Positions 12,508 to 44,063 of a stretch of DNA of 64,000 nt are shown piece after piece. The notes beneath the pieces were generated by a model, which saw nothing but the letters and a program-made list of their open reading frames with translations, did no database searches and was not told the DNA's origin. The position numbers were made by a program, and so were the translations under genes. The stretch's first letter is position 1, and every line of letters starts with the position of its first letter. The stretch is from Bacteroidales bacterium (GTDB lineage Bacteria > Bacteroidota > Bacteroidia > Bacteroidales > F082), in the NCBI GenBank assembly GCA_016285355.1, contig JAEEQP010000017.1:1-64000 (forward strand). The letters run 5' to 3'.

Positions 12508-13377
12508 TTATTGACCAGAGAACATCGTTTTGAAGAAATGCTTTAGTCTCGAAGTTTGAGGTCGAGATTCGGATTCATCATAGACCGAAGCCAAGGCGAT
12601 GCAAATATTGTCGTATCCTCCGGCATCTAAAGCAAGTTCCATAAGTTTATCGCAACACTCATTAATGTTATGATAATATGTCTTGATTACTTTCTCAATT
12701 GTGTTGTTTGTACAGTAACCGCACAACCCGTCTGAACATAACAAAAACACATCATTGGGTTGAATGTTATAAGTGACGATATCAGCTTCAGCAGGGGCAT
12801 CAAAGTCGCCCAATCCTCGCGTAATGAGGTTGCTGTCAGGATGAGACAGAGCCTTTTCTTCGGTCAATTCTCCTTTGTTGATGAGTTCCTGGACATAAGA
12901 ATGGTCTTTTGTTAAAGCTTTCAAGCCTAAACGAGGAGTAAATACATAACATCGGCTGTCTCCGCACCAAGCGATAAAAGCTTTATCTTTCAATATCCAA
13001 CATATAACAATAGTGGTTCCCATTCCAATGGTTTCGGGATGGGAAATCATGTGCTCGTTAAGGTATCTGTCAGCAGTTGTTATTACATTTTTAAGAAAGG
13101 CTGTGATTTTTTCTTCCGAAGCAATAATTTGGGAAAAATTGGATGAATTGAAGGTTTTTTGTATACTTTCAATAGTCAAATTTGAAGCTACCTCACCTGC
13201 ATTGGCTCCTCCCATCCCGTCAGCAACAACCAACACTGAACCTTTTTGGCCAATATGAGATTCTATTGCATTGTTGTTCCAATTGGGAGAACATAAATCG
13301 GGACAGAAGGTGAAGGCATCTTCATTATTGTCGCGTTCTTTGCCTGTGTCAGTTTTGGCAACAATTCTGATTTTCAT
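12508..13377 (-). CDS. PP2C-type protein phosphatase (Stp1/PppA-like)
   Basis: Mn/Mg-dependent Ser/Thr phosphatase, 289 aa, cytoplasmic. All core PP2C motifs are present in order: NEDA (metal Asp), VVADGMGGANAGE, GMGTT, WCGDSR, LLCSDGL and GYDNI. It is the last gene of the kinase - periplasmic protein - phosphatase group and lies in the same direction as the T6SS genes. In T6SS loci such as Pseudomonas H1, a PpkA-type kinase and a PppA-type phosphatase control an FHA protein. A kinase (15173-16687) and an FHA domain (24320-26734) are both present here, so it probably reverses that phosphorylation (inference). Confidence 0.93.
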   Translation of the reverse strand: MKIRIVAKTDTGKERDNNEDAFTFCPDLCSPNWNNNAIESHIGQKGSVLVVADGMGGANAGEVASNLTIESIQKTFNSSNFSQIIASEEKITAFLKNVITTADRYLNEHMISHPETIGMGTTIVICWILKDKAFIAWCGDSRCYVFTPRLGLKALTKDHSYVQELINKGELTEEKALSHPDSNLITRGLGDFDAPAEADIVTYNIQPNDVFLLCSDGLCGYCTNNTIEKVIKTYYHNINECCDKLMELALDAGGYDNICIALASVYDESESRPQTSRLKHFFKTMFSGQ

Positions 13378-13405
13378 ACTATTAAATTGATGAGGATGCG
13401 AACTG

Positions 13406-15163: not shown

Positions 15164-15172
15164 ATTATTTTA

Positions 15173-17794: not shown

Positions 17795-18649
17795 CTAATC
17801 GTGTTTCATTCCCAACTCATCCAAAATAGTCGTCAACGCATGCCTTTTGAATGTGTTTTTGTCATTCTGATTAAACACTATTTGTTTTCTGTCACCATAG
17901 GCTGACTGTCCGAACCAATGGAGAATAGAATTGAGAATCTCACCTTCTAACACAAAGGCATGAATTCTTTCGGTTCTTCTTTGATAATGAAAAAGGTCAG
18001 CCTTATTATTCAGCAGCAACGTTGCCTTTTCTCGATAGGGATTCAGTCCGGCAGCGTTAAAGGTAATGGCATGTCGACGAGTAACTAGTGAATTATTAGA
18101 TGCAAGTCCTCCACCAAGCGAGTGGCCAATAAACCAGAGTACGGCCTTGTCTCCTATCGCACTATCAATCTGTTTGGCCATCTGTACTGAATAGGTATAT
18201 TGAGGGGAAAGTCCTATGAGTCCTTGACTGATATTGGAGAACCAATCTTTAACAGACGACATTTCTGTTCCCTCCGTACAATATGCATAATACTGAATAC
18301 CATCGGCTTGTTTCTGAAACAACATAGAGTTGAAACCAGAGGCATCTCTTTTAAGTTTTAAATGGAAACCAGAGCCCATCAGTTTGTCAACTTCAGAAAA
18401 TGTCATGGGACTCCAACCATCTATTAGCTCCGCTTTCGGTTTTTTCCCTTGATTCAGTGCATGATAAGCATATTGACACATGGCAGCAGCAGCCATTACG
18501 TCAATATCGTGTTCATTATCAGCTCGAGGACCAAATTCCCTAAGGGACATTATTGTATCCGGTTTCAGTGTCGCGGAGCTAATACTGACTTCGGATAGAT
18601 GGATGGATGGTTGAAGATGTTTGTTCCCAAGTGGCTTCATTGCCATCAT
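17795..18649 (-). CDS. Class-3 lipase-like α/β-hydrolase
   Basis: 284 aa, no signal peptide. The nucleophile elbow GHSLGGG carries Ser177, and residues ~60-230 follow the class-3 lipase/DUF2974 layout (YAYCTEGTEMSSVKDWFSN ... IGHSLGGGLA ... FNAAGLNP). Its start overlaps the tssF stop as ATGA, so translation is coupled to the baseplate gene. Lack of a Sec signal plus coupling to tssF suggests it is either a T6SS-delivered lipase effector or an assembly factor. No neighbouring immunity gene is obvious, since the next gene is the glucosaminidase. Confidence 0.75.
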   Translation of the reverse strand: MMAMKPLGNKHLQPSIHLSEVSISSATLKPDTIMSLREFGPRADNEHDIDVMAAAAMCQYAYHALNQGKKPKAELIDGWSPMTFSEVDKLMGSGFHLKLKRDASGFNSMLFQKQADGIQYYAYCTEGTEMSSVKDWFSNISQGLIGLSPQYTYSVQMAKQIDSAIGDKAVLWFIGHSLGGGLASNNSLVTRRHAITFNAAGLNPYREKATLLLNNKADLFHYQRRTERIHAFVLEGEILNSILHWFGQSAYGDRKQIVFNQNDKNTFKRHALTTILDELGMKHD

Positions 18650-20433
18650 TCCTCCAAATTTCTAAGTTTCACAATAATCGGCATGGTAATGCACGACTTG
18701 TTCTCTATCCTTTGCTGCATGAGTTGGTCAAAAGACCGTTTTTTGGCTTCCTCATAGTTCTTCTTATCCTTGAACTCAATGTCAATGTAAAGACCTCTTT
18801 GCAACGATTTCTTACCGCCTGTGCCTTCAATGCTCATCTTGATGAAGATTCGTTTGAATTCCTCCTTGCCGAACTCTGCCATGATTTCCTTGCGCAGGAA
18901 AGCATCAATGTCCATTTTGGTGTATAAACGGTCATTGGTGAGAGAATAGTAGCGTAGCAGTTCATAACGCTCGTCAGCCGAGGCTTTGTCGGTTCCGCCC
19001 ATGGCAGAAACAACAACAGGCACTTTTTGTATGATGGAGGGCAGTTTTTTGTTCTCCAGGGTTTCGCCAATACTTGGGGTATTGCCTATTTCGCCTTGCG
19101 TGGAAATATAGTTGACTCTGATGGATGAGCTAGAGGAACTTTGCTTCATGTTTTTCATAACATAAGTGCCGCTGTCGAACTTGAATTTTTTGTTGGGCTC
19201 TTTGACGTTGTTGTTATTTCCAATTTTGTTAACTATCTCGCGCAACTGTTTGAGAGTCTTTTCGTCTTTTATGTCATTGTATTCGATGAAAGCGTAATAA
19301 TCATCTACAAAATGGTTGTATAGGTTGCGTACATCTCTATAAAGATCACCGCTATGATAACACGTAGCATCAAAATCGCGAACAATGATTTCGTCGTCCA
19401 ACCTGCTGAAACCTTGTTTGTTTGATGCCATGCTAGTTTCAAGGATGCGTAGGAAAAAAGAATCCTCTTGTTTCTGTAACTTGGCTATGGGTGAAGCTTG
19501 AGTGAGGGTGAGTGAACATAAATCGACATTGACAACGGGTATAACATTAATAAGTATTTCGCATTCTTCGGGAACGACATAATCTTCAGGAAAATCAAGT
19601 TGTAGCCATAAGGGATTTGCTTCTTTTAAGGTTGTCAATGTGTTTTCTTCAAGCCATTGTTCAAACATTTTTGGGTATGCTCTAGGCTTGAAAAGATCGC
19701 GGCTGTTGATATTGTCAGTGAAAAAAAGAAATGCCGCATCTTTCATGTTCAAAAGACACTCTTTCCACACGTCCAGAAATGAGAAGAACTGTCCCGACGC
19801 TTGTTGTGCATCAAATGGCTCCACCATCTCCATTTGTTCCATTTCTCTTATGGAAGCAAAATCAAGCTCCTTGCTCTCTGTTCCAACGTAAATATGTTTT
19901 GGAATGATTCCTTTTGTCCCTTTGATGAAAACAGAAAGCCCTTTTATGGATTCAATTTCAGCATTCGTCTTTATACCAATCCATAATCGGTTGGGTTTGT
20001 ACATGTATGCATTCTTGCTGTATTCGTTGTTTTGGTGCAAAACAATAATGTCAGAATAGGGAATGGCTAATGTGTTGAAAAGTGGAATATAGTTGAGAGG
20101 CTGCTTTCGCCCTTCGATTTTGTAGGAGAAAAAAGTTCCTGCACCAATTTGAAGGCTCTCGTCATCTTTATTAGTTTTGAATGTAGGGTTGATTAGAGTA
20201 ATGGCTGGCACGGCCTCCACTTCCTGTCTTGGAATAAAATCGGTACAATATCGTTCCACAATGCGTTGGTCTATGTCATCAATGTGATCCTGTATTTTTT
20301 GGGCTTCGTTCAATAAGGCAACGAGCATCATTTTGGCGACCGGATCCATCTGCTGGAAGTTGATATCGTCAGGCGAAAACAACTTTAATTGTTCGATGGC
20401 GTCATTGACTTTATTTTCTAATTCCAACTCCAT
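18646..20433 (-). CDS. tssF: T6SS baseplate protein TssF
   Basis: 595 aa, cytoplasmic baseplate wedge component. The N-terminal segment, RYCTDFIPRQEVEAVPAITL followed by TFKTNKDDESLQIGAGTFF, fits the conserved TssF start in which a hydrophobic P-x-x-x-V-x-A-x-P-A element precedes a β-rich region. Its position directly after tssE on the same strand and before the accessory lipase is typical. It is divergent from proteobacterial TssF, as expected for the Bacteroidota subtype. The mid part includes DVWKECLLNMKDAAFLFF. The assignment uses motif plus gene order. Confidence 0.8.
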   Translation of the reverse strand: MELELENKVNDAIEQLKLFSPDDINFQQMDPVAKMMLVALLNEAQKIQDHIDDIDQRIVERYCTDFIPRQEVEAVPAITLINPTFKTNKDDESLQIGAGTFFSYKIEGRKQPLNYIPLFNTLAIPYSDIIVLHQNNEYSKNAYMYKPNRLWIGIKTNAEIESIKGLSVFIKGTKGIIPKHIYVGTESKELDFASIREMEQMEMVEPFDAQQASGQFFSFLDVWKECLLNMKDAAFLFFTDNINSRDLFKPRAYPKMFEQWLEENTLTTLKEANPLWLQLDFPEDYVVPEECEILINVIPVVNVDLCSLTLTQASPIAKLQKQEDSFFLRILETSMASNKQGFSRLDDEIIVRDFDATCYHSGDLYRDVRNLYNHFVDDYYAFIEYNDIKDEKTLKQLREIVNKIGNNNNVKEPNKKFKFDSGTYVMKNMKQSSSSSSIRVNYISTQGEIGNTPSIGETLENKKLPSIIQKVPVVVSAMGGTDKASADERYELLRYYSLTNDRLYTKMDIDAFLRKEIMAEFGKEEFKRIFIKMSIEGTGGKKSLQRGLYIDIEFKDKKNYEEAKKRSFDQLMQQRIENKSCITMPIIVKLRNLEE

Positions 20434-20461
20434 ATTAACTGTCTCTATTTAAGTTCGTTGA

Positions 20462-20968
20462 TTAGTATTGCACCCTTCGCTTGGCTGTCGGCTCCATCAG
20501 AAACTCAACTCTCTTCTTGTATTGGTTTGTACTGATGCCACTATCTATCTCTCCTTCAATATTGATGCTGACAAGATGTTTCGACTGTACCTTCTGTTTC
20601 CGCTGTTGCTCTTTGTTGAATGCGGTATCTAGTTGGACTTCCACATTCACATTCTTCAGTTGTGGAGCATAGGTGAAAAGGCTTTTTTTAATACTCTCTT
20701 GACATTCCGATTTGGTGACTTCTGGTCCCATTGGACCAACTAGCATACCGCTTTGTCCGCTGTTGAAAGTACGGTATTGTATGTTGGAATACTCGTGGTT
20801 CCAATATTCAAATCCGAAGTCTGGGTCAGCAAGGAAACTTCCACGTGGAGTGAAAATGATAAGTTCAATAAGATTGTCAAGCAATTCAATCTGTGAGTTG
20901 AGATTGCGTTCCAATTCCAATACAAAATCAGAATCGTGATATGCCAAAGGCGTGCTAATAAAAGCCAT
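20462..20968 (-). CDS. tssE: T6SS baseplate protein TssE (gp25-like)
   Basis: 168 aa; the gp25/lysozyme-like wedge protein at the sheath-baseplate junction. The family signature is clear: IIFTPRGSFLADPDFGFEYW in the first half, followed by a β-strand segment with APQLKNVNVEVQLDTAF and a C-terminal HLVSINIEGEID strand. It lies between tssK and tssF with short gaps, as expected for a co-translated wedge module. Confidence 0.88.
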   Translation of the reverse strand: MAFISTPLAYHDSDFVLELERNLNSQIELLDNLIELIIFTPRGSFLADPDFGFEYWNHEYSNIQYRTFNSGQSGMLVGPMGPEVTKSECQESIKKSLFTYAPQLKNVNVEVQLDTAFNKEQQRKQKVQSKHLVSINIEGEIDSGISTNQYKKRVEFLMEPTAKRRVQY

Positions 20969-20973: not shown

Positions 20974-22215
20974 TTAGATTTTAATCCAGGATTTGTAATC
21001 CTTGTGGAAGGTTAGCGAGAAGACATTTATCTCGCTTGCAACTCCATTGAGAACGGCTCTCAATTTGACGACCAAGGTTTGGTCGTCTTCGGGTTCTCTT
21101 TGGGAATTGAAACTGTTTTTTAGCTTCATGCCGAGTTGACTTCCCTTGGATTTGGCTTCTTGGAACGAATTTCCTCCATCTGTTGAGAATTGCACTGTGG
21201 CTCCTGGTGTTGGGTTGAGTATGGGGACAAAGATGATGCTCTTACTACAGTTCTGATACAACTGGTCGTTTTCAATAGAAGGAGCGGCTGGTGCATTCAA
21301 TTGTGGTTTTTCAGGTTCTTTTACTTCAGCATGGTTCAACTTTTCGTTGATGGAGAACACAAATTCCAAACCCTCTTTGATCATTGGATATACATTTTGG
21401 TAATTGTATGGTTTCAGAGCGTAATTCCTGAAATTGTTAGCTTCGGACAATATGAGGTTTTTGTCAAGTTGGCAGGCGACGGTGAAAGCTCCAACAAATT
21501 TCTGAATATTGGCCAACAACATCATGGGAGACATTAGGTCGCGATTTTTGTCGGTGTCAATGAGGGTTTGTTGTACAATAGGCCAAAAGAGGCGGAAAGC
21601 TTCATCGGTATCACCTTGCACCAGATCGAATAGCTTTGACTCAGTTTCAGCCAGGTTTTGAATAAATCTGTTCAACAAATCTTTATATTTTTGATGTGAA
21701 GACACAAACAGACAAGGGGGAACAAAATCGATTTCGTCAACATGCCATCCGCCGTAGTCCGTATCGACAAGATGTGCAATGGGCAGTGCATTGTCAGCAA
21801 TGGAACTATTGACACCCACCAACGAAAACATGTACACGGGCTCTTCGTATTCATCGCTTGTTTCTTCCCATTGCTCAGGATGCACATTGATGGTCAAATA
21901 TAGTTCCTTGTCGTTTTGTATGACGGGCATTTGGATGCGTTTTTCCAAATGGTTAGAATAACGCGTGTCATATTGCACATCGATAAGAGCTCCGCTTTTG
22001 GTAACAGCGATGCAGTCCAAAGCCTGTACTTCAACATATTCGGGATGGATGTTTAATGAAAGTTGGAATGGACGAGCGCTAGGAAACAATCCGAATCGTC
22101 CAGCCGATGCTATTGTAAGGGCATTACCGATTCTGGATGCAGTGGCGTTTTCAGCCTTCCTCATGATTTCATCAGTCAGTCGCATTCCTTTTTTCCAACA
22201 AATTCTTTTTTCCAT
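20974..22215 (-). CDS. tssK: T6SS baseplate adaptor TssK
   Basis: 413 aa. The ATG at 22215 is preferred to an in-frame TTG at 22224 because it leaves a 5-bp gap after tssG. The N-terminal segment (WKKGMRLTDEIM, then SAGRFGLFPSARPFQLSLNIHPEYVEVQAL) matches the shell-domain layout of TssK, followed by a β-rich domain, a helical middle (~190-300) and a small C-terminal domain. TssK links baseplate wedges to the envelope complex. The C-terminal domain (residues ~325-413, ATVQFSTDGGNSFQE) is unlike that of classical TssK, consistent with a different envelope partner. Confidence 0.78.
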   Translation of the reverse strand: MEKRICWKKGMRLTDEIMRKAENATASRIGNALTIASAGRFGLFPSARPFQLSLNIHPEYVEVQALDCIAVTKSGALIDVQYDTRYSNHLEKRIQMPVIQNDKELYLTINVHPEQWEETSDEYEEPVYMFSLVGVNSSIADNALPIAHLVDTDYGGWHVDEIDFVPPCLFVSSHQKYKDLLNRFIQNLAETESKLFDLVQGDTDEAFRLFWPIVQQTLIDTDKNRDLMSPMMLLANIQKFVGAFTVACQLDKNLILSEANNFRNYALKPYNYQNVYPMIKEGLEFVFSINEKLNHAEVKEPEKPQLNAPAAPSIENDQLYQNCSKSIIFVPILNPTPGATVQFSTDGGNSFQEAKSKGSQLGMKLKNSFNSQREPEDDQTLVVKLRAVLNGVASEINVFSLTFHKDYKSWIKI

Positions 22216-22220
22216 AGTAT

Positions 22221-23099
22221 TCAAATATTCATGTTGTAATTCATAAAATTATAAACAGACTCATTCGACAGGCATAGGGGATCAGTGTCATAGCTGATGT
22301 TGAACTTCAACACTACTTCCAATCCCATGAAATAGTCTTGGATGAACAGGCGAAAGGTCTCAATCTCTTCAATCACTTTCAAAAAGTCTGCATCACAAAA
22401 ACTCTCAGGCCAAAAATGAATGTCGTATGTTGTAGCTTGTTCGTAAAACGTGTTATCGACATAAAAACCGTTTATGTCTGAACCAAGTTGGGTATCGTAT
22501 CTTGGACAAGGGTCAGTGAATTCATGCTTTTTATCCTTAACGCTAATGTTCAAACCTTCTTCCATAAAAACTTTGCGTAACATCATGGTTAAATGGGTTC
22601 TGTTTCCACGAATCCATTTACAGAAAGGCAAAAAAGGAAGGGTCTGCTGGATGAATCGGTTTTGCCGTTGTGCTTCGCTGATCTCATCACCGAGGATGTC
22701 AATCATGATTTTGTCGGTTTCAACATATTCCTTCAACCTCTCCCTGATGCTCATGCGCAGACGGAGCAACATCAGATCAATGGGCGCGAAAAACTTATAA
22801 GCATATTCTATCTCACGTTCCTGAGCTTCGCACTCTTCTTCAAATAATTCCTTTTCATTGGCGGCTGGCAAGTTGTCAAAGCGGTCAATGGGATGAAACA
22901 TTAGTTCGGGTAGGACATTGTATAAGCTGGTACGTCCTACGGTTAGTTTCAATGTTCCATTTTCATGCTCCAAATCCATAAGGTCGTTGTATGCGTTACG
23001 TTTGTGTAGTCCGCTGAAAGCAACTTTGCACGAACCTTCTGGAAAATAGGATAGAAGGAGCTCGATATTGAGGTCGTCGGGAATATTTCTGGGAAGCAT
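22221..23099 (-). CDS. tssG: T6SS baseplate protein TssG-like
   Basis: 292 aa from the ATG at 23099; an upstream TTG at 23111 is less likely. The sequence is divergent, but the C-terminal third has the TssG layout: QLGSDINGFYVDNTFYEQATTYDIHFWP followed by FRLFIQDYFMGLEVVLKFNI. Gene order (E1 - TssG - TssK - TssE - TssF) and spacing (12 bp after E1, 5 bp before tssK) support the call. TssG is the remaining wedge partner of TssE/TssF/TssK, and no other gene in the locus could fill that role. Confidence 0.7.
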   Translation of the reverse strand: MLPRNIPDDLNIELLLSYFPEGSCKVAFSGLHKRNAYNDLMDLEHENGTLKLTVGRTSLYNVLPELMFHPIDRFDNLPAANEKELFEEECEAQEREIEYAYKFFAPIDLMLLRLRMSIRERLKEYVETDKIMIDILGDEISEAQRQNRFIQQTLPFLPFCKWIRGNRTHLTMMLRKVFMEEGLNISVKDKKHEFTDPCPRYDTQLGSDINGFYVDNTFYEQATTYDIHFWPESFCDADFLKVIEEIETFRLFIQDYFMGLEVVLKFNISYDTDPLCLSNESVYNFMNYNMNI

Positions 23100-23111: not shown

Positions 23112-24311
23112 TTATTGGAACGCAGCGGCATCAGCACAGAGTTCGACATGGAATATACCTTTTTCAGTGCTGACTTGGATTACATCGTATGGGGGTATTC
23201 CGATTTGTTGCAACGTGAGATCCTGATAGGGAAAATCGGCATCAATGTTCTCGTAAAATGATTTGTGGAATAAAGTACGGTGACTCAGTTTTCTTATTTC
23301 AGCATTTTTGTTGATGAAATGGTCGAGCTGTGACTCAGGAATCATGATTTTGAATTCCTTTTCTGGCTTGTCAGAAACAATTTTGTCGATAAATTTGTTG
23401 TTGCACATATTGATTTCTACATTGTCCACATTGAGAAGTGACTTTAGGGAAGCAAGGACATCTTTCACAGATTGTGTTGCTGAAAGTTTTGTTCCTTCCA
23501 TAATATTATCCCAAAGTTCATGGGCAGTACAATTGTTTTTCCATGAGGCAAACTTGAAGACCTTGGTGCTATTGGTCATTCCGTCATAATGGAACATTTT
23601 TCCCTGCAAGGTGCGGAATTGCGGAGCGGCCTCGGTATCGAGGTGGATGATTTTCATGGCCTCTTGGACTTGCATGGCTCCTATGATGGATGCACTAATG
23701 GGCGTAGTGGCCACTCGTCCTGCAGAACTTTGAAGACGAACCACGTCAGCACACCCTGTCCTTAGCATGATGTTGTTGAATTCATCTCGTGAGAGGCCAC
23801 ATTCATAACATGCCAAGCCAGGTGTATACACTTTTACGACTCCTGTCATGTTCTCGATACTGCCGTCAACCCAAGTTTTTCCAGCCCTCATGCACAAACG
23901 GTTGAGTTGATAGCGCGCAATGCGGCTGTCGAGGCAGCCAATGACTACATCCACCATGTGATAGATGCCAAAACCGACATCTGAAAACAGATTGCCCACA
24001 ATTGGAATAACGTTGATTTGTGGATTGATTTCCATCGCACGTTTGGCTACAATCTCAGCTTTATAGGAATGATTGTATGCGTCTTCCTCCCTGAAAAGGA
24101 CTGAACGGGTGAGATTTGACAATTCTATTTGATCAAAATCGACCACATAAATGTGACCGACGCCGAAGAGGGCCAAATCTTTTACGACCTCATTGCCTAA
24201 GGCTCCAGCACCTGCAACCAGCACCCGAGCATTTTTGACTTTTTCTTTCTTGAACCAGGAAAGCAGGGTAAAAACGCCCTCGCCCCATTCATATTTGTTA
24301 TTGTTTTCCAT
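23112..24311 (-). CDS. E1-like ubiquitin-activating enzyme (ThiF/UBA fold)
   Basis: 399 aa adenylating enzyme. The Rossmann loop GAGALG is at 34-39 in VLVAGAGALGNEVVKDL; the adenylation-site residues Asp58/Asp60, Asn66 and Arg69 lie in VVDFDQIELSNLTRSVLF, with Asp128 in GCLDSRIARYQLNR. CYEC (Cys168, Cys171) and Cys187 are candidate zinc or thioester cysteines. After the catalytic region there is a ~110-residue C-terminal domain ending LQQIGIPPYDVIQV, similar to the E2-presenting fold domain of eukaryote-like E1s and not to MoeB/ThiF. It lies 8 bp after the RING protein and 12 bp before tssG, in one transcript with a Ubl, an E2 and a JAB protease. It is therefore expected to charge the Ubl at 31465-31794. 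Confidence 0.92.
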   Translation of the reverse strand: MENNNKYEWGEGVFTLLSWFKKEKVKNARVLVAGAGALGNEVVKDLALFGVGHIYVVDFDQIELSNLTRSVLFREEDAYNHSYKAEIVAKRAMEINPQINVIPIVGNLFSDVGFGIYHMVDVVIGCLDSRIARYQLNRLCMRAGKTWVDGSIENMTGVVKVYTPGLACYECGLSRDEFNNIMLRTGCADVVRLQSSAGRVATTPISASIIGAMQVQEAMKIIHLDTEAAPQFRTLQGKMFHYDGMTNSTKVFKFASWKNNCTAHELWDNIMEGTKLSATQSVKDVLASLKSLLNVDNVEINMCNNKFIDKIVSDKPEKEFKIMIPESQLDHFINKNAEIRKLSHRTLFHKSFYENIDADFPYQDLTLQQIGIPPYDVIQVSTEKGIFHVELCADAAAFQ

Positions 24312-24319
24312 GATGATTG

Positions 24320-26734
24320 TTAGTTTTCAACATATTGGAAAGTAGTATCTCCAATTTTAAAGATGTCATTATTATAAAGTGGCACAGGCTTGTTGTCGGA
24401 ATTAAGCTCTGTTCTCGTATTGAAAATAATGAACGCTAATGGTTTCATCATAGCCTGAGAACGAGCATGGTCAATGTAAAGTTGCACATGCTCCTTTGCC
24501 ACTTTATTGCTCTTTTCCCAATTCATCATAATTTCACATTGTTGAGTCATGCCAATCGTTACCTTATGGCCTCCTCCATTGGCGTTCATCCATTTATGGA
24601 TTGGTATTTTTGTCCCAGCTTTGATTCCATCCTTAATGACAAGGAAGTATTTCTCCGCCAACATTCTAACTGTAACAAGCGAGGCACCCAGTCCGCCGCC
24701 ATAAATGACGAAATCAAGTAATAAATTCTTCCAACTTCCACGCATGTTGGTAATACTAGAGAAATATAGCACCATAAAACCAATGATAGCCGATGCCAAA
24801 CCTCCTAAAAGGGCACTTTTGATTGGAATGGTGGATTTGATGGTAAGGCTTAGCGAAGTGCATATTGAGAATAGCAAGTAAGCGGGGAATGAATAATACC
24901 ATCGGATGTAAGTGCTGTCAGGAGAAAGGCATAAGCATAGGATAATAGATCCCAAGGCAAATGCAGCCATGCCGATAACACTTGACAACAAGGATAACCC
25001 CATGATTTTCAGCAAAGACTTCCAGTCTTTTCTCTTGATGCCGTCATTATATCTGAAAATGAGCGAGAGGAAAAAGGCTAAGAGTAGTCCTATGGTGAGG
25101 AAAGAAGAAATTTCTGTTGTACACAAATCTGTGATGTTCAAACTTTGTGCTTTCTCGCCGAAGAAGATCTTGACAATACCTTTTGCCAAACCTTTGAAAA
25201 GTCCTCTTCCAGTGAGGTCATAGATAATCCAACTGACCAAACCAGCAATAACACCCATAATTGTCAAAGAACAGTCGCGCAATGTTTTCATGCTGAAAAG
25301 TTCTTTCCAATGAACATGATCTTGTATGCCTTCCTTACAGTTTTGCCCATATTCGACGCACTTGAAATCATTGGCTTTCCAACAATGCACATGCATAATA
25401 TGTTTGCATTTGGTCACAACCTTTTCGTCTGGCATGATTTCCATTCTACATAATGGACATCTTAGTTTGATATTCTTGACATTCTCTGTTAATACTATTG
25501 GTCTGTATCGTTTGTAGTATTTTGCAGCAAAGGCCTTCGACTTCACTCCAGGGATGAGTATTTTCATGATAATGATAAATAACACAATAGTAGCGAGTGC
25601 TACAATCAATGATATCAAGTACTTTTTTAATGATTCGCTTGTGTTTTCAGCTCGATTGGGCCATGGATTTAACGAGGTACCAATAGAAAATGATGCAATA
25701 CCTATTCTTTGGTCATCCCACAGAGCTTCATAATTCACCATTTCTCCTGTATAAGTGTTCTTCTCGGGAACTTGATAAGTGAGGGCAAAGTCGTACATTT
25801 CATTTCTGACGGCTTGCATAAAGCTTACCAACAAACTGTCGATATTATTGGAGGGCATATAGTCACCTAGGCGGCTACTGATGATGTTGCCGTTGGTGTC
25901 TCGTGGTTTAGTGACACTTTTCAGATGCCTTTCCAAACTTTCGTTGATACCTTCTTCTGTCTTATAATAGAAGGCATATACTTTGGGTACATACTGAGCT
26001 GTTTTAAGATATTCATTGATTTCAAGAATTGTAAGATATTCTATACTAGGTATTTTACTGCTTTCAGTGAAAATAAATAATAAATTCTTTCCATCATTAT
26101 TTTGAGCCCTTAGTGAGATGGTATCATTTATCTGATGACCAGCTTCCCATTTGACGGAATCAATGAGGGTTCCATATCCCCACTCGAACTCTGAAAGCTT
26201 GCTATATAAAGCACTGTAAAAACATTTCTCATTGGCTCCCTTCTTAAATTGTTCTTTGAAATTTTTGTAGTTTTGTTTTGTAACCAATTTGCTTTGTGTG
26301 ACGCTATCGCCGAAAAATGAAATGTACACACTACTATCATGAGCACTTTCAACCAGTGATTTGAGAGCTTCAAAGATTTGGCCTTTGCCCTCTATTGGTA
26401 TATTCCTATCAATTAAGACGGAGAAAGTATAGCCGGCGGGTATACGTTGTCCTTCTGTTAAGGTCTTCACTTTCCAACGACTTCTTGGAACGGTGTCACC
26501 GTCCTCAATCAGGACGAAATGCGTTTCAAGATCAGGAGCATCTACCTCGGTCATACGTTTTCCGTTCTCATCGAGAGCTTTTAGAAAAAACGTAATGCTA
26601 TCATTTCCAACATCATATACGTGATTTTCATTGCCAAACTGGATTTCATTCGGTTTTTGGGCATTGGCAGGAGATACCCAAATAAAAAACATACTGATAA
26701 GTAATCCGATGATTATCTTTTTCTTCTTGTCCAT
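24320..26734 (-). CDS. Membrane protein with vWA-like, RING-like and FHA domains; candidate E3
   Basis: 804 aa from the ATG at 26734, overlapping the JAB gene by 22 bp. Order of domains: signal/anchor (MDKKKKIIIGLLISMFFIWVS); vWA-like region ~100-270 (FSVLIDRNIPIEGKGQ, a degenerate metal site); membrane helix ~373-394; RING-H2-like zinc site with Cys426, Cys429, Cys443, His445, His448, Cys451, Cys459 and Cys466; four to five more membrane helices ~480-690; C-terminal FHA-like domain ~705-804 (KVTIGM, KEHVQLYI, IFKIGDTTFQY). The first FHA arginine position is Met here. The last RING pair is spaced CX6C instead of CX2C. With E1 and E2 beside it, it is the best candidate for a membrane E3 ligase that also reads phosphothreonine. 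Confidence 0.8.
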   Translation of the reverse strand: MDKKKKIIIGLLISMFFIWVSPANAQKPNEIQFGNENHVYDVGNDSITFFLKALDENGKRMTEVDAPDLETHFVLIEDGDTVPRSRWKVKTLTEGQRIPAGYTFSVLIDRNIPIEGKGQIFEALKSLVESAHDSSVYISFFGDSVTQSKLVTKQNYKNFKEQFKKGANEKCFYSALYSKLSEFEWGYGTLIDSVKWEAGHQINDTISLRAQNNDGKNLLFIFTESSKIPSIEYLTILEINEYLKTAQYVPKVYAFYYKTEEGINESLERHLKSVTKPRDTNGNIISSRLGDYMPSNNIDSLLVSFMQAVRNEMYDFALTYQVPEKNTYTGEMVNYEALWDDQRIGIASFSIGTSLNPWPNRAENTSESLKKYLISLIVALATIVLFIIIMKILIPGVKSKAFAAKYYKRYRPIVLTENVKNIKLRCPLCRMEIMPDEKVVTKCKHIMHVHCWKANDFKCVEYGQNCKEGIQDHVHWKELFSMKTLRDCSLTIMGVIAGLVSWIIYDLTGRGLFKGLAKGIVKIFFGEKAQSLNITDLCTTEISSFLTIGLLLAFFLSLIFRYNDGIKRKDWKSLLKIMGLSLLSSVIGMAAFALGSIILCLCLSPDSTYIRWYYSFPAYLLFSICTSLSLTIKSTIPIKSALLGGLASAIIGFMVLYFSSITNMRGSWKNLLLDFVIYGGGLGASLVTVRMLAEKYFLVIKDGIKAGTKIPIHKWMNANGGGHKVTIGMTQQCEIMMNWEKSNKVAKEHVQLYIDHARSQAMMKPLAFIIFNTRTELNSDNKPVPLYNNDIFKIGDTTFQYVEN

Positions 26735-28386
26735 ATTTTTAATTCTTCTAATAATTGTTCTCCATAATAAGTTTCGTCGGTACACAGGTCATTAGAAATA
26801 ATGGGTATGGTTGTAACCAGACCGTCAGTTTTCGAATAGACCAGTACGAATTTGATTTTATCAAGATAGTTGGCGATAGCTTTCTTGATAGATGGGATGC
26901 TGCAATGGTTGGCCAAAACAAAACACCCAATGAGTTCGTTGTCAGATATTGATTCGGTATCCTCAACTTTGGCAGCTATATAATAGGTGGTTTGTTTCGG
27001 TTGCTGCTGGGTGAAACCGTGTACATAATAAACAGGATTGTGTTCTTGTTTGACTGTAAGCTTGTCTATGTCGATGATGACACTATTGGTGAGTCCGACA
27101 GAATAACATTGACTGATGCGTGATTTGGCAGTGGCCAGAGTATTAAATAGGTCTTCAGGTTTAATAGAGGTACGGCTGCTTTCCACCGCCCACTTGTACC
27201 ACTCTTCTAATGAATAGAGTTTTGTCAGGTCCGCTTTCGAGTTGATATTTAGGTCGTGTTTAAAAGTAAAGATTCCCAGCTCTTGCGTGGGTGTAAGGAT
27301 GTCGATAACAATAGCGGTCAGGAATTTTGGGTATGTGGGATGTTTGTGGAGGAGGTGCAAACTGCAATCGGTATTGCTGAAAAACACGCCTAAGCCTGGG
27401 TGAGAGTGTACCCAGCAGGTCAAGTCATATTGCAAGTCGGTTTCACGCCTCAATTTTCTAAGTTTTTCGCTGACCTTTAGCTTGATTTTAGCCCCAAAAT
27501 TCAGTTCGTATTCAGCAAAAATGGCATCATCGCCTGGTTTGACAATTTCTTCTAAGGAAACACAATACTCGTCTTTTTCTGCATCGCGTATCCACCGTCC
27601 TAACACCATGCAGCCGTCTTCCTTGGGATTGTTGGGATTCCTAAGGTCTTCAGCATACATGTTGTAAATGTCTATGATGCAAGTGTTTTTGATGTACATG
27701 GTCTTGACTGCGGAATCGTTGCAGAAATCGGAACAGTTGACAGCAAGATAGTTGCTGTCTTTAAATACATCGTCAAGACTTTGTTTGTGAAGAATAGAGG
27801 TAGTCTTACGCCTTACGACAATATCGGTATTTCCTTCGCTACTGGATGTGGTTGCCATTAGGATGTTCTTTCTGGCTTTCTCGTTCCTTCGTCTGGCTTT
27901 GATTACAAAAACGACAACGACAGTTAGGATGAGCAAAAGGATTAAAGTCAGCACTATCCATTCCCATTGATGATTATCAGATTCATCGCTTTGAGGTTTG
28001 TTTTCCGACTCTTGGTTTTCAATCTCTTGACGTTTCTTTTTCAGGATGCTGAGCATATCCTTTTCTATGCATTGCTTGCTGATTTCCATTGGAGTCATGT
28101 CGGCAGTTTCAGGACTATTGTCTTTTATTCTGTATGTGCCGTAGTTGTCATCATAAAAATCCAACTCTTCAAGGAAATTTCTGCTGAATCGGATTCCTTC
28201 TTCATCCGTTAAGGGAAGTTGTGATTGTGAGTTGACATGGGACTCAAATGTCTTCAGGATGACTTCCTTGTCAATTGATCCGTCAGCGTTTCGTCGTACG
28301 TCGTTGGTTTGCGCCTGTGTCATTGTCTCTATGGATAGTAATAGGGACAGGATAATTAAAGAAATGATACGGTAAATGTATTTCAT
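26713..28386 (-). CDS. Membrane-anchored JAB/JAMM deubiquitinase-like protease
   Basis: 557 aa from the ATG at 28386 (an upstream TTG is ignored). A signal peptide is followed by a ~110-residue periplasmic part, a membrane helix at ~142-163 (WIVLTLILLLILTVVVVFV) and a large cytoplasmic region. The JAMM zinc motif is intact: His327-Ser-His329-Pro ... Ser337-x-x-Asp340 (VHSHPGLGVFFSNTD), with candidate upstream Glu residues in YCVSLEEIV. JAB proteases paired with E1/E2 remove Ubls from targets or mature Ubl precursors. The Ubl here already ends in Gly, so deconjugation is the likelier job. A second domain (~400-557) follows and is not recognised. The membrane anchor is unusual for bacterial JAB proteins. 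Confidence 0.88.
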   Translation of the reverse strand: MKYIYRIISLIILSLLLSIETMTQAQTNDVRRNADGSIDKEVILKTFESHVNSQSQLPLTDEEGIRFSRNFLEELDFYDDNYGTYRIKDNSPETADMTPMEISKQCIEKDMLSILKKKRQEIENQESENKPQSDESDNHQWEWIVLTLILLLILTVVVVFVIKARRRNEKARKNILMATTSSSEGNTDIVVRRKTTSILHKQSLDDVFKDSNYLAVNCSDFCNDSAVKTMYIKNTCIIDIYNMYAEDLRNPNNPKEDGCMVLGRWIRDAEKDEYCVSLEEIVKPGDDAIFAEYELNFGAKIKLKVSEKLRKLRRETDLQYDLTCWVHSHPGLGVFFSNTDCSLHLLHKHPTYPKFLTAIVIDILTPTQELGIFTFKHDLNINSKADLTKLYSLEEWYKWAVESSRTSIKPEDLFNTLATAKSRISQCYSVGLTNSVIIDIDKLTVKQEHNPVYYVHGFTQQQPKQTTYYIAAKVEDTESISDNELIGCFVLANHCSIPSIKKAIANYLDKIKFVLVYSKTDGLVTTIPIISNDLCTDETYYGEQLLEELKIWTRRKR

Positions 28387-28397
28387 AATCAATGAAT

Positions 28398-29672
28398 TCA
28401 GATGGATATTCGTTTATTGTTTCCTGTTTTGTTTTTGCCTTTGTCAATAGCATTGTGTACTGCGGTTTTGCTTTTTTGTCGTGCTTGGTTCATAGCCTTC
28501 CCTGTTTGTCTACGGATAGCACCTTGAGCTTTGCTTCTCGCCATGTTTTTGGCTCTGTTTTCCGCATCTTTCTGCATCTGCATCATGCTGCGTTGTGTCC
28601 TAATGTTGCGGAAGCTTTGCAACACTTGATTGCCCACAAAAAGCAAAATGGCCAATAACACGCCGCCAATAATTTTCCAAATATTGCGATTCTTTAGTTC
28701 TTTTATTTTCTCTGTAGCTTCTTTCTTATACTGACCGTTGGGATGAGTCTTTAGATAGATTTCATAATCGTCTTTTTTAAGACAATGTGCATAATCATCG
28801 TAGTCAGCCTTCCTTTCTGCCTCTTCTTGTGCGGCAAGGGCTTGAGCCTGGGCTTGTTCTTGTGCGGCAAGTTCTTGTTCTTTGGCTTGTTTCTCTAAAT
28901 CCTTTTTTTTTGTATCATATTGTTCTATGAATCGTTCAATCTCTTGGGTAATTTTTGTTTTGTCAACATTATATTTTTGCTTTTGGAGATTATTGTATAC
29001 ATCAACCAAGATGTCTTCAAAAGGAACTGACTCTTGTTTGGCAAGGAGCTCTTTGGCCAATTTGAGATTGTTCAGAGCGTTGGTTTCTTCTTCCGATACG
29101 GTCTCTTCTATTTCCTCTACTTGGTATTGTGGATCGGATTTAATTCTATTGTATTGGGAAGGCTTGGAATTGCTTCCCATCTTGACATTGAGATAGCCAC
29201 ACAAATATAAAATCTTGTATTCTCTTTTTCCTTCATAATGTGCTAGGTAGATAGGAATGGATACGACTTTTTCACCTGGTGATTTTATCTCAAAGGATAG
29301 CGAAGGATAGGGTTGGTTGTCAAGGAAAAAATAGCTGTCTAAAGATTTGGAATAACCTATGTCCGATGGGATGGAGAAAGCCCGAGGGGTGATAATGCTG
29401 GTGAATTTTATGTCTTCTATCACTTCAATCCTATCGAAAAAAAGCAATTTGATTTCGCTACTCTTGCCATATCTTCCACGAAGGGCATCTCCAAGGTTTT
29501 TTCTTACGCTTTTGAACTTCAATTCAACCTTGTTGTCTCGTTGTGTCGTTTCATAAGTGACGATAATCCTATCACCCTGGTCAGAGCACAAAGTGTCTGT
29601 GATGATCCGTGCCGGGGAGAAAAGGCTTGCAGAGAGTGCGAGAATTAAAAGAAAAGTTCTGATACACTTCAT
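28398..29672 (-). CDS. Envelope protein with periplasmic domain, coiled coil and C-terminal membrane helix
   Basis: 424 aa from the ATG at 29672, coupled to the preceding gene by ATGA. A signal peptide (MKCIRTFLLILALSASLFSPA) leads into a β-rich domain (~25-175), then a highly charged Ala/Glu/Gln coiled coil (~235-300, EQAQAQALAAQEEAER), a short conserved segment (DYEIYLKTHPNGQYKKEA) and a membrane helix (IIGGVLLAILLFVGNQVL), with a basic cytoplasmic tail of ~60 residues (RSKAQGAIRRQTGKAM). I do not recognise a family. Periplasm-spanning topology and location between the E2 and JAB genes make it a candidate part of the envelope complex that the locus otherwise lacks. Confidence 0.72.
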   Translation of the reverse strand: MKCIRTFLLILALSASLFSPARIITDTLCSDQGDRIIVTYETTQRDNKVELKFKSVRKNLGDALRGRYGKSSEIKLLFFDRIEVIEDIKFTSIITPRAFSIPSDIGYSKSLDSYFFLDNQPYPSLSFEIKSPGEKVVSIPIYLAHYEGKREYKILYLCGYLNVKMGSNSKPSQYNRIKSDPQYQVEEIEETVSEEETNALNNLKLAKELLAKQESVPFEDILVDVYNNLQKQKYNVDKTKITQEIERFIEQYDTKKKDLEKQAKEQELAAQEQAQAQALAAQEEAERKADYDDYAHCLKKDDYEIYLKTHPNGQYKKEATEKIKELKNRNIWKIIGGVLLAILLFVGNQVLQSFRNIRTQRSMMQMQKDAENRAKNMARSKAQGAIRRQTGKAMNQARQKSKTAVHNAIDKGKNKTGNNKRISI

Positions 29673-30775
29673 TGTTTGTAGTCCTTGATGGCTTTGTAAA
29701 CCTTTTTGATGTTCATTACAGTAATTCCTCCTTTCTTCCAATTAGAAGCATGTTTTGCACATGTCGGATCGGAGCAGCATTTATAGAGCGTTTCCACTTC
29801 TTGCATCATTTCCTTCGATTTTTCTTTGTCTTTGTTGAGCAAATCCATGTAATGGTTGTTCAATAAATTGTAAATTTCTTCAAGTGAAAGCGACTGTTTG
29901 CAGAATTTGCAATAGTGAACGGTTTTATGCTTTGTCTTGTCGCAGCAATCGTATTTTGATTCTATATAGTCTTTTATGGCAATATCCATAGTGTCTAATT
30001 TTGATTTTAAATCCTCATACATTTTGTATTTGCTGCTTCCTGGTTCCCATTTGGTTTTGGCTTCATTGATTTTTGTTTTTAAGTAATCTTTTTTATCTGT
30101 GTATACAAAGATTTGGTCTTCAAATTTAGGCTTGTGCAGTTTGTTGGTACAAAATGCGTGAGCCTTTATGGAATCGTTGAAAACCGTAACCAATGAGTCG
30201 CACTGTTGTTCGAGTAGGAAATAGGTGGAATCCGTATTTTCAACAGAGATTTCGATGGAAATCTCTTGAATGCTTTCTATGGTTCTCTTTTTTTTACCGC
30301 ACAAGAACATCTCCTTCTCTTTGGCTACATGGATGGGCACTACACACTTATAAATCTCCCCTTCTTTGACGGTGATTTTGGGAAACTGATATTCGTGTGT
30401 TCCGTATTCAGATGGAATACAAACAAAATCTTCTACATTTATAGTTTCAACTTTTTGGACGAATTCGCCACCAGGTAAGTTTTCCGCAAAATAAACACCG
30501 ATTTCACGAAGTGCTTTTTTGTCCAATGCCCGGTTAAACAATAAGAGCTGGTAATCATCGTCAGCTTTTTCCAATTTGATGAACACAGAAGTATTTCCTA
30601 TAGCATCCGTCTCTCCTTTTTCTAAGATAAAGCGACACAACTCTGAAAAATTATATATTATTAGTTGTTCGTGGGATGGATGGTCATCGCTCAGTTGGAC
30701 ATCAATTCGTTGCTGTCCAAACGCCATTGTAATGGCAAAGCAAAGTACCGTTAGCGTTAGGAAGGTTTTTCTCAT
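29669..30775 (-). CDS. Exported Cys-rich protein of the ubiquitin-like cassette
   Basis: 368 aa with a signal peptide (MRKTFLTLTVLCFAITMAFG). The N-terminal ~190 residues are β-rich; the C-terminal part is helical and holds paired cysteines (YDCCDK, HYCKFCKQS, YKCCSDPTCAKH), suggestive of a zinc ribbon or disulfide-bonded module. Both ends overlap neighbours by ATGA (E2 upstream, 424-aa protein downstream), tying it tightly to the conjugation genes. Family unknown. An exported protein translated in step with an E2 is odd and points to a joint function with the membrane-bound JAB and RING proteins. Confidence 0.72.
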   Translation of the reverse strand: MRKTFLTLTVLCFAITMAFGQQRIDVQLSDDHPSHEQLIIYNFSELCRFILEKGETDAIGNTSVFIKLEKADDDYQLLLFNRALDKKALREIGVYFAENLPGGEFVQKVETINVEDFVCIPSEYGTHEYQFPKITVKEGEIYKCVVPIHVAKEKEMFLCGKKKRTIESIQEISIEISVENTDSTYFLLEQQCDSLVTVFNDSIKAHAFCTNKLHKPKFEDQIFVYTDKKDYLKTKINEAKTKWEPGSSKYKMYEDLKSKLDTMDIAIKDYIESKYDCCDKTKHKTVHYCKFCKQSLSLEEIYNLLNNHYMDLLNKDKEKSKEMMQEVETLYKCCSDPTCAKHASNWKKGGITVMNIKKVYKAIKDYKQ

Positions 30776-31443
30776 ATCATACGGGGTTTTTTGATAAGTG
30801 GTTTAATTGGAGTCTGAGTGTCAGAGGCAGGTGTGGATGAAGGCTCAGGTTTTTTTATAGGCTCGGGAGTGGTTTGTGCAAACCTTGTCCAGCCATTAGG
30901 TTCGGCTTCCTCGCGCACCCATTCGGCCACATTCTGGTCTTCAGGGTAAGGATAGGTGTTTTGTGCGTGATAGAGTTGGTATTTCAGGTAGCGTTCCACG
31001 CGGAGCACTAAGGTCTTGAGCGAGGCCATCACCCCCATGTCTTTAATGGTGAGGCACACATGCCCTTTGAAACTTCCCGAGTAGCGGATGTTGGGATGCC
31101 ATACATCGGTGCGGAAGGTGAAGATAGGATTGCCATCGGCAGCAGGATAGTTGTTGGGCAATATGATACTCATCTTGTGAAGGTTGCCGAAGATGGGTTC
31201 GCGGGGAATAGGAGAGTCTTTTACGCCCACAATGGATCTGACGCGATACCAAATCTCATATTCGACGGGGAGACCCATAGCGTTCTTCTTGCGGATAATA
31301 TAGGAAATGGAAGGCTCACGCGGGTTGGCACTTTCGGCTTGACGTTTATCGCAGAGTGTATCAAGTTCTTTCCATTCCTGCCAAAGTGCCGCATCACGGG
31401 GCTTTAGCTTCTTTAGGTTGAAGTTATTAATGTTATCGTTCAT
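30772..31443 (-). CDS. E2-like ubiquitin-conjugating enzyme
   Basis: 223 aa. Residues ~16-180 are a UBC domain with the expected order: YPAADGNPIFTFRTDV, then His116-Pro117-Asn118 (HPNI), then the active-site Cys130 in GHVCL, then a helix and WVREEAE. The HPN triad ahead of the cysteine is the eukaryote-like arrangement, not the reduced form of some bacterial E2s. The C-terminal 45 residues are Pro/Thr-rich (KKPEPSSTPASDTQTP) and look disordered. The gene begins 21 bp after the Ubl gene and overlaps the next by ATGA. It should accept the Ubl from the E1 at 23112-24311 and pass it on with the RING protein. Confidence 0.93.
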   Translation of the reverse strand: MNDNINNFNLKKLKPRDAALWQEWKELDTLCDKRQAESANPREPSISYIIRKKNAMGLPVEYEIWYRVRSIVGVKDSPIPREPIFGNLHKMSIILPNNYPAADGNPIFTFRTDVWHPNIRYSGSFKGHVCLTIKDMGVMASLKTLVLRVERYLKYQLYHAQNTYPYPEDQNVAEWVREEAEPNGWTRFAQTTPEPIKKPEPSSTPASDTQTPIKPLIKKPRMI

Positions 31444-31464
31444 GGCTTGTGAGGTTGTGAAAGA

Positions 31465-31794
31465 TTAACCTGCAATAGGTTCACTGGTGAGTTCAAGATG
31501 GTCGCCAGGCTGCACATTGTAATCAGCCAGAGTGAGTTCGCGGCCCTCATCATCCATAAATTCAAAAATGGTAGGCTCTTCACCTTCTTCGACGATTTGT
31601 CCCAAAAGGTATCTGATGGGGACGCCACCGTTGTCCATTTTCGGGAGTTCGAAAACCTCAACGATTCTATTGATTTGATCGCTGATGGTACTCATAGGGT
31701 TGGTTACCTCCACTTCCACTTCTTCATATTGAGTTCCAGGAAGGGTTAGCGTGATGACGAATGCATCATCGTAATAATTTTTTTCGTTTTCCAT
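31465..31794 (-). CDS. Ubiquitin-like modifier (YukD-like β-grasp) ending in Gly
   Basis: 109 aa. A β-grasp pattern is visible: FVITLTLPG (strand 1), VEVEVTNPMSTISDQINRIVEVF (strand 2 and helix), PIRYLLG, IFEFMDDEGRELTLADYNVQPGDHLELTSE (final strands). The 'L-x-D-Y-x-V-x-x-G-D-x-L-x-L' end is the YukD/ubiquitin signature. The chain stops at PIAG, so the terminal glycine is exposed without processing. Gene order Ubl-E2 with an E1, RING and JAB downstream supports a conjugated modifier. Length and fold also fit a free YukD-like protein, but its position beside an E2 favours conjugation. Confidence 0.85.
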   Translation of the reverse strand: MENEKNYYDDAFVITLTLPGTQYEEVEVEVTNPMSTISDQINRIVEVFELPKMDNGGVPIRYLLGQIVEEGEEPTIFEFMDDEGRELTLADYNVQPGDHLELTSEPIAG

Positions 31795-41689: not shown

Positions 41690-41692
41690 GTA

Positions 41693-44047: not shown

Positions 44048-44063
44048 AGTTGTAGTGTCTTAA

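What the first reader, a model, noticed from the sequence alone, without database searches (positions are those of the whole stretch)
23112..31794. Complete ubiquitin-like conjugation cassette embedded in a T6SS operon
Seen: Ubl ending in Gly, E2 with HPN and Cys130, E1 with ThiF core and extra C-terminal domain, JAB with an intact HxHx10D motif, and a RING-H2-like membrane protein, all on one strand with 8-21 bp gaps or ATGA overlaps, and 12 bp from tssG. Known: bacterial E1/E2/JAB/Ubl sets occur in defence operons (Bil type) and RING-containing sets with YukD-like Ubls have been described from comparative genomics. I know of no described T6SS with a full set. Inference: the system tags sheath, baseplate, effector or envelope proteins to control firing, or marks cargo.
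Basis: partly seen in the sequence, partly recalled or inferred. Interest (0 to 1): 0.95.

Follow-up and report, generated by a model that had tools for sequence, protein, structure and literature searches.

The report
Ubiquitin-like tagging system inside T6SS
Some gut and rumen Bacteroidales carry, inside the gene cluster for their contractile toxin-injection machine, a complete membrane-anchored ubiquitin-like protein-tagging pathway that seems to travel with the machine's core parts, which hints that bacteria may use ubiquitin-style tags to build or control such weapons.

Summary
Minus-strand genes 31794-23112 encode a ubiquitin-fold protein ending in Gly, an E2, two exported proteins of unknown fold, a membrane-anchored Rpn11-like JAB peptidase, a membrane protein (signal peptide-VWA-TM-RING-5TM-FHA fold) and an E1, 12 bp before tssG in a ~35-kb type VI secretion (T6SS) gene run. 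Active-site and RING zinc residues are invariant in the 37-40 sequences aligned. In a scan for close relatives, tssG follows E1 in 32 of 33 loci whose DNA extends past E1. E1 and RING distances follow baseplate and sheath genes (r 0.72-0.86), not VgrG or PAAR (r about 0). TssN, core of the known Bacteroidota T6SS membrane complex, is over cut-off in 0 of 36 cassette genomes; TssC is in 33. Against a strict T6SS role: close relative L022 and four distant sets lie away from T6SS genes, two of them beside an extracellular contractile injection system with a degenerate RING; and one T6SS with a similar TssC score (L042) has neither cassette nor TssN. Best reading: a working Ubl-conjugation module wired to machine assembly or firing. 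Conjugation is untested. I found no report of this combination in the held library.

The parts
31465..31794 (-). Ubl modifier, 109 aa, ubiquitin fold, C-terminal ...PIAG
   Evidence: AF2 pLDDT 87, Foldseek to ubiquitin-fold proteins about 1e-4; Gly109 39 of 39
30772..31443 (-). E2 conjugating enzyme, HPN motif and candidate catalytic Cys130
   Evidence: UQ_con 9.7e-6, just below cut-off; UBE2K 5.9e-7 by profile; C130 40 of 40
29669..30775 (-). X368: exported protein (signal peptide by eye), largely conserved C209, H214, C277, C289, C333 (31-32 of 33); fold unknown
   Evidence: no confident Pfam match
28398..29672 (-). X447 (424 aa from ATG 29672): signal peptide, exported region, one TM at 334-352, basic tail; fold unknown
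26713..28386 (-). JAB/JAMM peptidase: signal peptide, exported N-terminus, TM 144-162, JAB domain, C-terminal domain
   Evidence: Rpn11-like, 2.9e-8
24320..26734 (-). Candidate E3: signal peptide-VWA (about 46-350)-TM (365-406)-RING-H2 (426-466)-5 TM (482-693)-FHA fold (694-804)
23112..24311 (-). E1: ThiF domain with candidate catalytic Cys187, candidate Zn site C168/C171/C261/H264, extra C-terminal domain 262-399 of unknown fold
22221..23099 (-). tssG (baseplate)
   Evidence: hhalign 99.2%, 9.8e-20 to TssG of TssN-type loci
20974..22224 (-). tssK (baseplate)
   Evidence: NCBIfam TIGR03353 1.3e-8, below its cut-off; hhalign 98.0%
18646..20968 (-). tssE (20462-20968, gp25-like) and tssF (18646-20433)
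   Evidence: PF04965 0.0017, below cut-off; tssF: a profile of the window protein finds tssF in 6 of 7 TssN-type loci
39632..46830 (-). VgrG, two TssD/Hcp, TssC, TssB, ClpV (TssH)
   Evidence: TssB only below cut-off (0.0041)
46846..47397 (-). UpxY-family antiterminator gene, first gene of the run
   Evidence: NF033644 3.1e-45, over its cut-off
12508..16687 (-). PP2C phosphatase, WG-repeat protein, Ser/Thr kinase with one TM at the distal end of the run

Best explanation
A membrane-anchored, catalytically competent ubiquitin-like conjugation module that is part of a T6SS lineage without detectable TssN and acts on the machine core. E1 activates the C-terminal Gly of the Ubl, E2 carries it, and the VWA-TM-RING-FHA membrane protein acts as E3 at the inner membrane; the membrane-anchored JAB removes the Ubl or, where it carries a tail, matures it. 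Conjugation to baseplate, sheath or envelope-complex proteins would control where the machine docks or when it is rebuilt, with the exported VWA, X447, X368 and JAB N-terminal regions acting as envelope-side scaffold or sensor. Shown here: gene order, invariant active sites, predicted folds and topology, linkage and co-variation with TssG/K/C/B. Inferred: that conjugates form, the substrates and the effect on firing.
For: Active-site and RING ligand residues invariant in 37-40 aligned sequences, including three sets 45-49% identical to the window in E2. tssG follows E1 in 32 of 33 loci reaching past E1. E1 and RING distances track TssG, TssK, TssC, TssB (r 0.72-0.86, P 0.001, the floor of 999 permutations) but not VgrG or PAAR (r -0.09 to 0.06). 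TssC in 33 of 36 cassette genomes. Cassette and TssC associated in a draw of Bacteroidales, P=2e-4 with the centre genome left out. Ubl tails beyond the Gly in distant relatives: IAG-YLVV in L061, PGG-K in L070, AG-KI in G818 (the last identified by position only); L068 and the T6SS-type Ubls have no tail. TM helices in the JAB and RING proteins of T6SS and non-T6SS sets.
Against: No biochemical evidence. L022 and distant G052, G492, G586, G818 have the set without T6SS genes beside it; G022 has neither TssC nor a phage-type sheath. In L068/L070 and G818 the RING is degenerate. L042 is a T6SS with a TssC score like that of the cassette genomes but neither cassette nor TssN. E2 distances also correlate weakly with VgrG and PAAR (r 0.35 and 0.33), and E1/RING do not track the TssD at 42181 (r 0.05-0.20). 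The FHA fold lacks the canonical Arg in 30 of 31 sequences and the DxSxS VWA metal motif is complete in only 3 of 31, so phospho- or metal-gating through them is doubtful (motifs recalled).
Confidence: 0.55

Rival explanations
1. The cassette's membrane proteins replace the TssN-O-P-Q-R membrane complex: the multi-TM VWA protein, X447, X368 and the exported part of the JAB protein form the trans-envelope anchor, and Ubl transfer is an assembly step of that anchor.
For: TssN over cut-off in 0 of 36 cassette genomes against 7 of 13 cassette-free TssC genomes (P 2e-5). PMC10781749 (passages) reports tssN between tssK and tssG; here tssG and tssK overlap and the cassette lies directly upstream. 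The inventory resembles the known complex (multi-TM TssN, TssR with a VWA-like domain, single-TM TssO/P/Q; passages).
Against: No sequence relation to TssN (hhalign probability 2.2% or less). In the seven TssN-type loci that I held, tssN lies between tssK and tssG in only 2 (L073, L074), between tssK and tssF in 3 and apart in 2, so the argument from position is weak. L042 has neither cassette nor TssN, and the G283 and G367 T6SS loci also lack detectable TssN. JAB and RING-type membrane proteins also occur without T6SS. Within the 17 TssC genomes of the draw alone the avoidance is not significant (P 0.09; 0.15 without the centre genome).
Confidence: 0.18
2. A defence or self-protection module: it tags incoming effectors or phage proteins, as Bil/Bub-type systems do, and sits in a T6SS conflict island.
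For: Bacterial Ubl systems are known in antiphage defence (recalled; e.g. PMC10097602, abstract in listing). PADLOC E1-E2 profiles match the E1 (3.4e-14).
Against: PADLOC matches none of the other six proteins scanned; the JAB and E3 candidates are membrane proteins; co-variation with core machine genes and strict operon position rather than island-like exchange.
Confidence: 0.12
3. An independent envelope-stress or surveillance Ubl system of Bacteroidota that was captured by a T6SS locus and kept for expression reasons.
For: Distant sets beside SrfB/Virul_Fac (L061), beside an eCIS (L068, L070), or with neither nearby (G818); L022 beside FHA and WG-repeat genes in a genome without TssC or phage-type sheath.
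Against: All four distant non-T6SS genomes hold a phage-type contractile sheath gene (base rate 87 of 395 Bacteroidota), two on the same contig as the cassette; G022, the close relative, does not. Co-variation with TssG/K/C/B.
Confidence: 0.14

Closest known systems
RING-containing prokaryotic Ubl systems (Burroughs, Iyer, Aravind 2011; in FtsH-ternary conflict systems, PMC7159879)
   Same: E1, RING-type E3 and JAB as separate genes plus E2 and Ubl, predicted by comparative genomics (PMC7159879 passages; the 2011 paper was not held, recalled only)
   Different: There Ubl and E2 are combined in one protein, with EAD1, FtsH and MoxR partners; here all are separate genes, the JAB and RING proteins are membrane proteins, and the partner is a T6SS
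Bil / Bub / CBASS type II E1-E2-JAB operons
   Same: Ubl conjugation logic; E1 distantly alike (Citrobacter BubCD 3e-6)
   Different: BilD has an inactive plus an active adenylation domain (PMC11354881 passage), while this E1 has one ThiF stretch; no PADLOC match outside E1; RING-type E3; secretion-machine context
Caldiarchaeum E1/E2/small-RING/Rpn11 ubiquitin system (PMC5654768, start of abstract in listings)
   Same: Its Rpn11-like protein is the best PDB match of the JAB (2.9e-8); its ubiquitin is among the structure matches of the Ubl
   Different: A small RING there; a large membrane protein with VWA and FHA folds, in a T6SS run, here
Bacteroidota T6SSiii, GA1-GA3 (PMC10781749, PMC4714493, passages)
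   Same: TssB/C/D/E/F/G/H/I/K and a PAAR-like gene
   Different: No detectable TssN; Ubl cassette before tssG
T7SS YukD/EccD and TssN ubiquitin-like folds
   Same: Ubiquitin-like fold in a secretion system
   Different: YukD was reported not covalently conjugated (PMC1779556 passage); here a full cascade is encoded

Membership tests
Bacterial Ubl-conjugation system with E1, E2, RING and JAB | Ubiquitin-fold modifier with exposed or releasable C-terminal Gly | tested here: met
   (fold is a prediction)
Bacterial Ubl-conjugation system with E1, E2, RING and JAB | E1 with ThiF core and conserved Cys; E2 with HPN and Cys | tested here: met
Bacterial Ubl-conjugation system with E1, E2, RING and JAB | JAB with intact JAMM motif | tested here: met
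   (E, HxH, S, D kept also in L061, L068, L070, where S330 is Thr)
Bacterial Ubl-conjugation system with E1, E2, RING and JAB | RING finger with eight Zn ligands | tested here: met
   37 of 37; kept in L061, lost in L068/L070; PDB match weak, 0.003
Bacterial Ubl-conjugation system with E1, E2, RING and JAB | Covalent conjugates form | not testable with these tools
   needs biochemistry
T6SS | Sheath, tube, spike, baseplate and ClpV genes | tested here: met
   TssC, TssD over cut-off, TssB, TssE, TssK below cut-off in single-protein scans
Canonical T6SSiii / GA1-GA3 | TssN in the membrane complex | tested here: not met
   0 of 36 cassette genomes over cut-off, one sub-threshold match; TssN profile negative in the window and all cassette loci held then. 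The window's own genome is not held
Canonical T6SSiii / GA1-GA3 | TssO, TssP, TssQ, TssR | tested here: inconclusive
   no Pfam match in the run's proteins, UpxY not scanned, but genomes were not searched for them; PMC10781749 finds tssO, tssQ and tssR absent or unidentifiable in 23-31% of systems
Bil | E1 with an inactive and an active adenylation domain | tested here: not met
   one ThiF stretch, residues 22-262 of 399; BilD description from PMC11354881
Bil / Bub defence systems | Matches of the other components to PADLOC profiles | tested here: inconclusive
   PADLOC 2023: only the E1 matches, through E1-E2 profiles; I did not check which Bil/Bub profiles it holds
FtsH-ternary Ubl systems | Ubl and E2 in one protein, FtsH and MoxR partners | tested here: not met
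   separate Ubl and E2 genes; no FtsH or MoxR gene over cut-off in the run

The most novel reading that the evidence does not exclude
Bacteroidota evolved a membrane-tethered ubiquitin-like conjugation system dedicated to contractile injection machines in general (T6SS and eCIS), which in this T6SS lineage took over the role of the TssN-type membrane complex, so that machine docking or firing is gated by covalent Ubl tagging.
Probability: 0.22. Interest if true: 0.95.

Novelty: new variant of a known kind. Interest (0 to 1): 0.87.

Why it matters
If conjugation is confirmed, ubiquitin-like tagging would be a control layer of a bacterial secretion nanomachine, outside phage defence and cofactor synthesis. 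It would give a bacterial E1-E2-RING-JAB pathway in cultured commensals with a defined likely substrate space (about a dozen Tss proteins), and bear on how membrane-anchored RING E3s and Rpn11-type deconjugases arose. It also poses the open question of how a T6SS without detectable TssN anchors to the envelope.

Tried and rejected
Chance neighbours: rejected by synteny in 32 of 33 testable loci. Sulfur-carrier (ThiS/MoaD) pathway: rejected because E2, JAMM and RING residues are conserved together. Homology of the VWA-RING protein, X447, X368 or JAB to TssN: not found. E1 C-terminal domain as an E1 ubiquitin-fold domain: no PDB profile match (best E 0.35, unrelated), left open; both AF2 jobs went to the Ubl and the RING protein. 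The TssN match in G030 is sub-threshold (21.1 vs 30.3 bits) and was not counted. Phospho-gating by FHA: weakened, canonical Arg in 1 of 31. Plasmid and phage records: no E2 match. No Rfam match at gathering score and no tRNA in the window. The second-look structure list mostly tests residues 93-464; absence of other folds there means nothing. One search listed 11 of 267 genomes; seven of them are weak partial matches (E 2e-5 to 1e-3) that I did not follow up.

Papers: ten searches. Five were aimed at this combination and listed every paper found: 6, 21, 2, 6, and for eCIS 9. The other five showed only the top rows. I opened passages of seven papers (PMC3482391, PMC10781749, PMC4714493, PMC11354881, PMC1779556, PMC7159879, PMC8213781); the rest I saw as listings. 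None of this showed the cassette in a T6SS or eCIS. Most subscription papers, including Burroughs 2011, are not held.

Rows and limits: loci L013 and L017 end before E1 and L006 at E1, so they are not among the 33. L043 ends before JAB; L027, L032 and L033 start inside or at the Ubl. The scan finds close relatives only (69-82% identity; 80 stretches matched, 36 loci). The 393-genome draw includes its centre G011 by design, so I also give the test without it. Related genomes are not independent, so P values are optimistic. The distance test used only the window and loci 1-36. No genome search was aimed outside Bacteroidota. Counts of aligned sequences include the window.

Changed on checking against the calls: the position of tssN in my own loci weakens the argument from position, and G022 lacks a phage-type sheath; I therefore lowered the anchor rival from 0.20 to 0.18 and the novel case from 0.25 to 0.22, raised the independent-system rival from 0.13 to 0.14, and set the PADLOC row for Bil/Bub to inconclusive.

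Full report
Observation. The minus-strand genes at 31794-23112 encode, in order, a 109-aa ubiquitin-fold protein, an E2, two exported proteins (X368, X447), a JAB protein, a RING membrane protein and an E1; tssG, tssK, tssE and tssF follow. With the likeliest ATG starts the gaps are 21, -4, -4, 11, -22, 8 and, to tssG, 12 bp. The run belongs to a ~35-kb block with its main genes on one strand: ClpV, TssB, TssC, two TssD, VgrG, a PAAR-like toxin gene, a phospholipase-like gene, and a kinase and phosphatase at the distal end, headed by an UpxY-type antiterminator.

Conservation. One scan of GTDB genome contigs with the E2 gave 36 close loci (69-82% identity), with titles naming Bacteroidia, Bacteroidales or families and genera within them. 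The order Ubl-E2-JAB-RING-E1-tssG-tssK holds for whatever part is present in all 36 (two loci hold only Ubl and E2). Of 33 loci with DNA past E1, 32 have tssG next; L022 does not, and its genome has no TssC. L022's neighbours include FHA and WG-repeat proteins with relatives (26-33% identity) near the T6SS of L042/L052, so it may be a remnant or an orphan. TssC was found in 33 of 36 genomes (G021, G022, G032 lack it, though the L021 and L032 loci hold tssG and tssK).

Random draws. Among 393 Bacteroidales genomes TssC is in 17 (one, G309, a short fragment) and the E2 in 5; 4 of the 5 have TssC. Without the centre genome it is 3 of 4 against 16 of 392, P=2e-4. The RING-type protein is in 3 of 395 Bacteroidota genomes, the centre G011 included. 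Distant sets L044 and L045 (E2 46 and 45% identical) keep Ubl, E2, JAB, RING and E1 before tssG.

TssN. PMC10781749 describes TssN as the proposed core of the Bacteroidota membrane complex, between tssK and tssG (passages), and PMC4714493 finds the TssN-R proteins in all of GA1-3 (passages). TssN is over cut-off in 0 of 36 cassette genomes (one sub-threshold hit) and in 7 of the 17 TssC genomes of the draw, none of them E2-positive. 0 of 36 against 7 of 13 gives P=2e-5, but within the 17 alone P=0.09. Six genomes have neither: G275 and G306, whose TssC lies on short contigs, and G309 may be assembly gaps; G283, G367 and G294 look real. G294 (L042) has a T6SS with a TssC score like that of cassette genomes, without cassette or TssN. 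So the cassette is not the only way to lack TssN. In the seven TssN-type loci that I held, tssN is between tssK and tssG in 2, between tssK and tssF in 3 and apart in 2. Profile comparison shows no relation of cassette proteins to TssN, while TssG and TssK controls ring. The window's own genome is not held, so for the window itself only the 64 kb were checked.

Co-inheritance. Distances of E1 and RING track TssG, TssK, TssC and TssB (r 0.72-0.86, 16-33 loci) but not VgrG or PAAR (r -0.09 to 0.06), nor the TssD at 42181 (r 0.05-0.20). E2, which is much more conserved, gives lower values with core genes (0.34-0.61) and weak ones with VgrG and PAAR (0.35, 0.33). This argues for a bond to the machine core rather than to particular effectors.

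Beyond T6SS. G052, G492, G586 and G818 hold E1, Ubl, E2, JAB and the RING-type membrane protein without T6SS genes next to them; TssC is absent from the first three and was not searched in G818. In G492 and G586 the cassette lies 21 and about 44 kb from a contractile sheath on the same contig, with PAAR, eCIS_core and nSTAND1 genes directly beside it (Pfam run on the G492 genes, which have relatives in the same place in G586). The Phage_sheath_1 match of G492 is just under its cut-off, but the same protein is over the cut-off of Phage_sheath_1C. G052 and G818 have a sheath gene on another contig. The sheath family is in 87 of 395 Bacteroidota genomes, so four of four is suggestive (0.2%) and no more, since it was noticed afterwards and the close relative G022 has none. 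In G492, G586 and G818 (my reading of the sequence, which also lacks the VWA) the RING is degenerate, while the E1 and E2 active sites and the JAMM motif of L061, L068 and L070 are intact. Three of these Ubls end a few residues after the Gly (IAG-YLVV, PGG-K, AG-KI), which fits a processing role for the JAB; that of L068 does not.

Mechanism. I read this as a working Ubl cascade whose E3 and deconjugase are tied to the inner membrane, with the exported regions acting as envelope-side scaffold, and with T6SS core proteins as the most likely substrates. Every step after domain identity is inference. The main rival is that the membrane parts are this lineage's substitute for the TssN-type anchor; the two are compatible.

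Known or new. Complete RING-bearing Ubl sets in bacteria have been predicted before (PMC7159879, passages; Burroughs 2011 recalled, not held). I found no report of such a set in a T6SS or eCIS in the held library (searches listed under Tried and rejected). I therefore file it as a new variant of a known kind.

Noticed in passing
window 46846-47397: An UpxY-family antiterminator, normally linked to capsule loci (recalled), is the first gene of the T6SS run; L029 also has one before clpV.
   Followed up: partly
window 34846-36339: PAAR-like DUF4280 domain fused to a glutamine-deamidase (papain-fold toxin 1) domain: a likely T6SS effector.
   Followed up: no
window 31838-34559: Tle1-like phospholipase next to a DUF2931 protein, a possible effector-immunity pair placed directly upstream of the Ubl.
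   Followed up: no
window 37643-39613: A protein with InlB-like repeats and a T9SS sorting tail lies inside the T6SS run.
   Followed up: no
L042, L051, L052 (G294): T6SS with a TssC score like that of cassette genomes but without cassette or TssN, with several kinase-like genes, FHA-like genes, a PP2C and an M23-like peptidase gene beside tssG (FHA and M23 by eye).
   Followed up: partly
L022: Close cassette copy without tss genes, next to FHA and WG-repeat proteins related to those near the L042 T6SS.
   Followed up: partly
L061 and L067 (G052): Cassette beside SrfB and Virul_Fac genes; a second JAB-like protein lies about 20 kb further on.
   Followed up: no
L068 14731-15633: An ion-channel gene (Ion_trans) directly follows the eCIS-linked cassette in G492; G586 has a relative at the same place.
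   Followed up: no
genomes G004 and G035: Two TssC matches each, of a lower-scoring type (about 333-346 bits), hinting at a further T6SS lineage.
   Followed up: no
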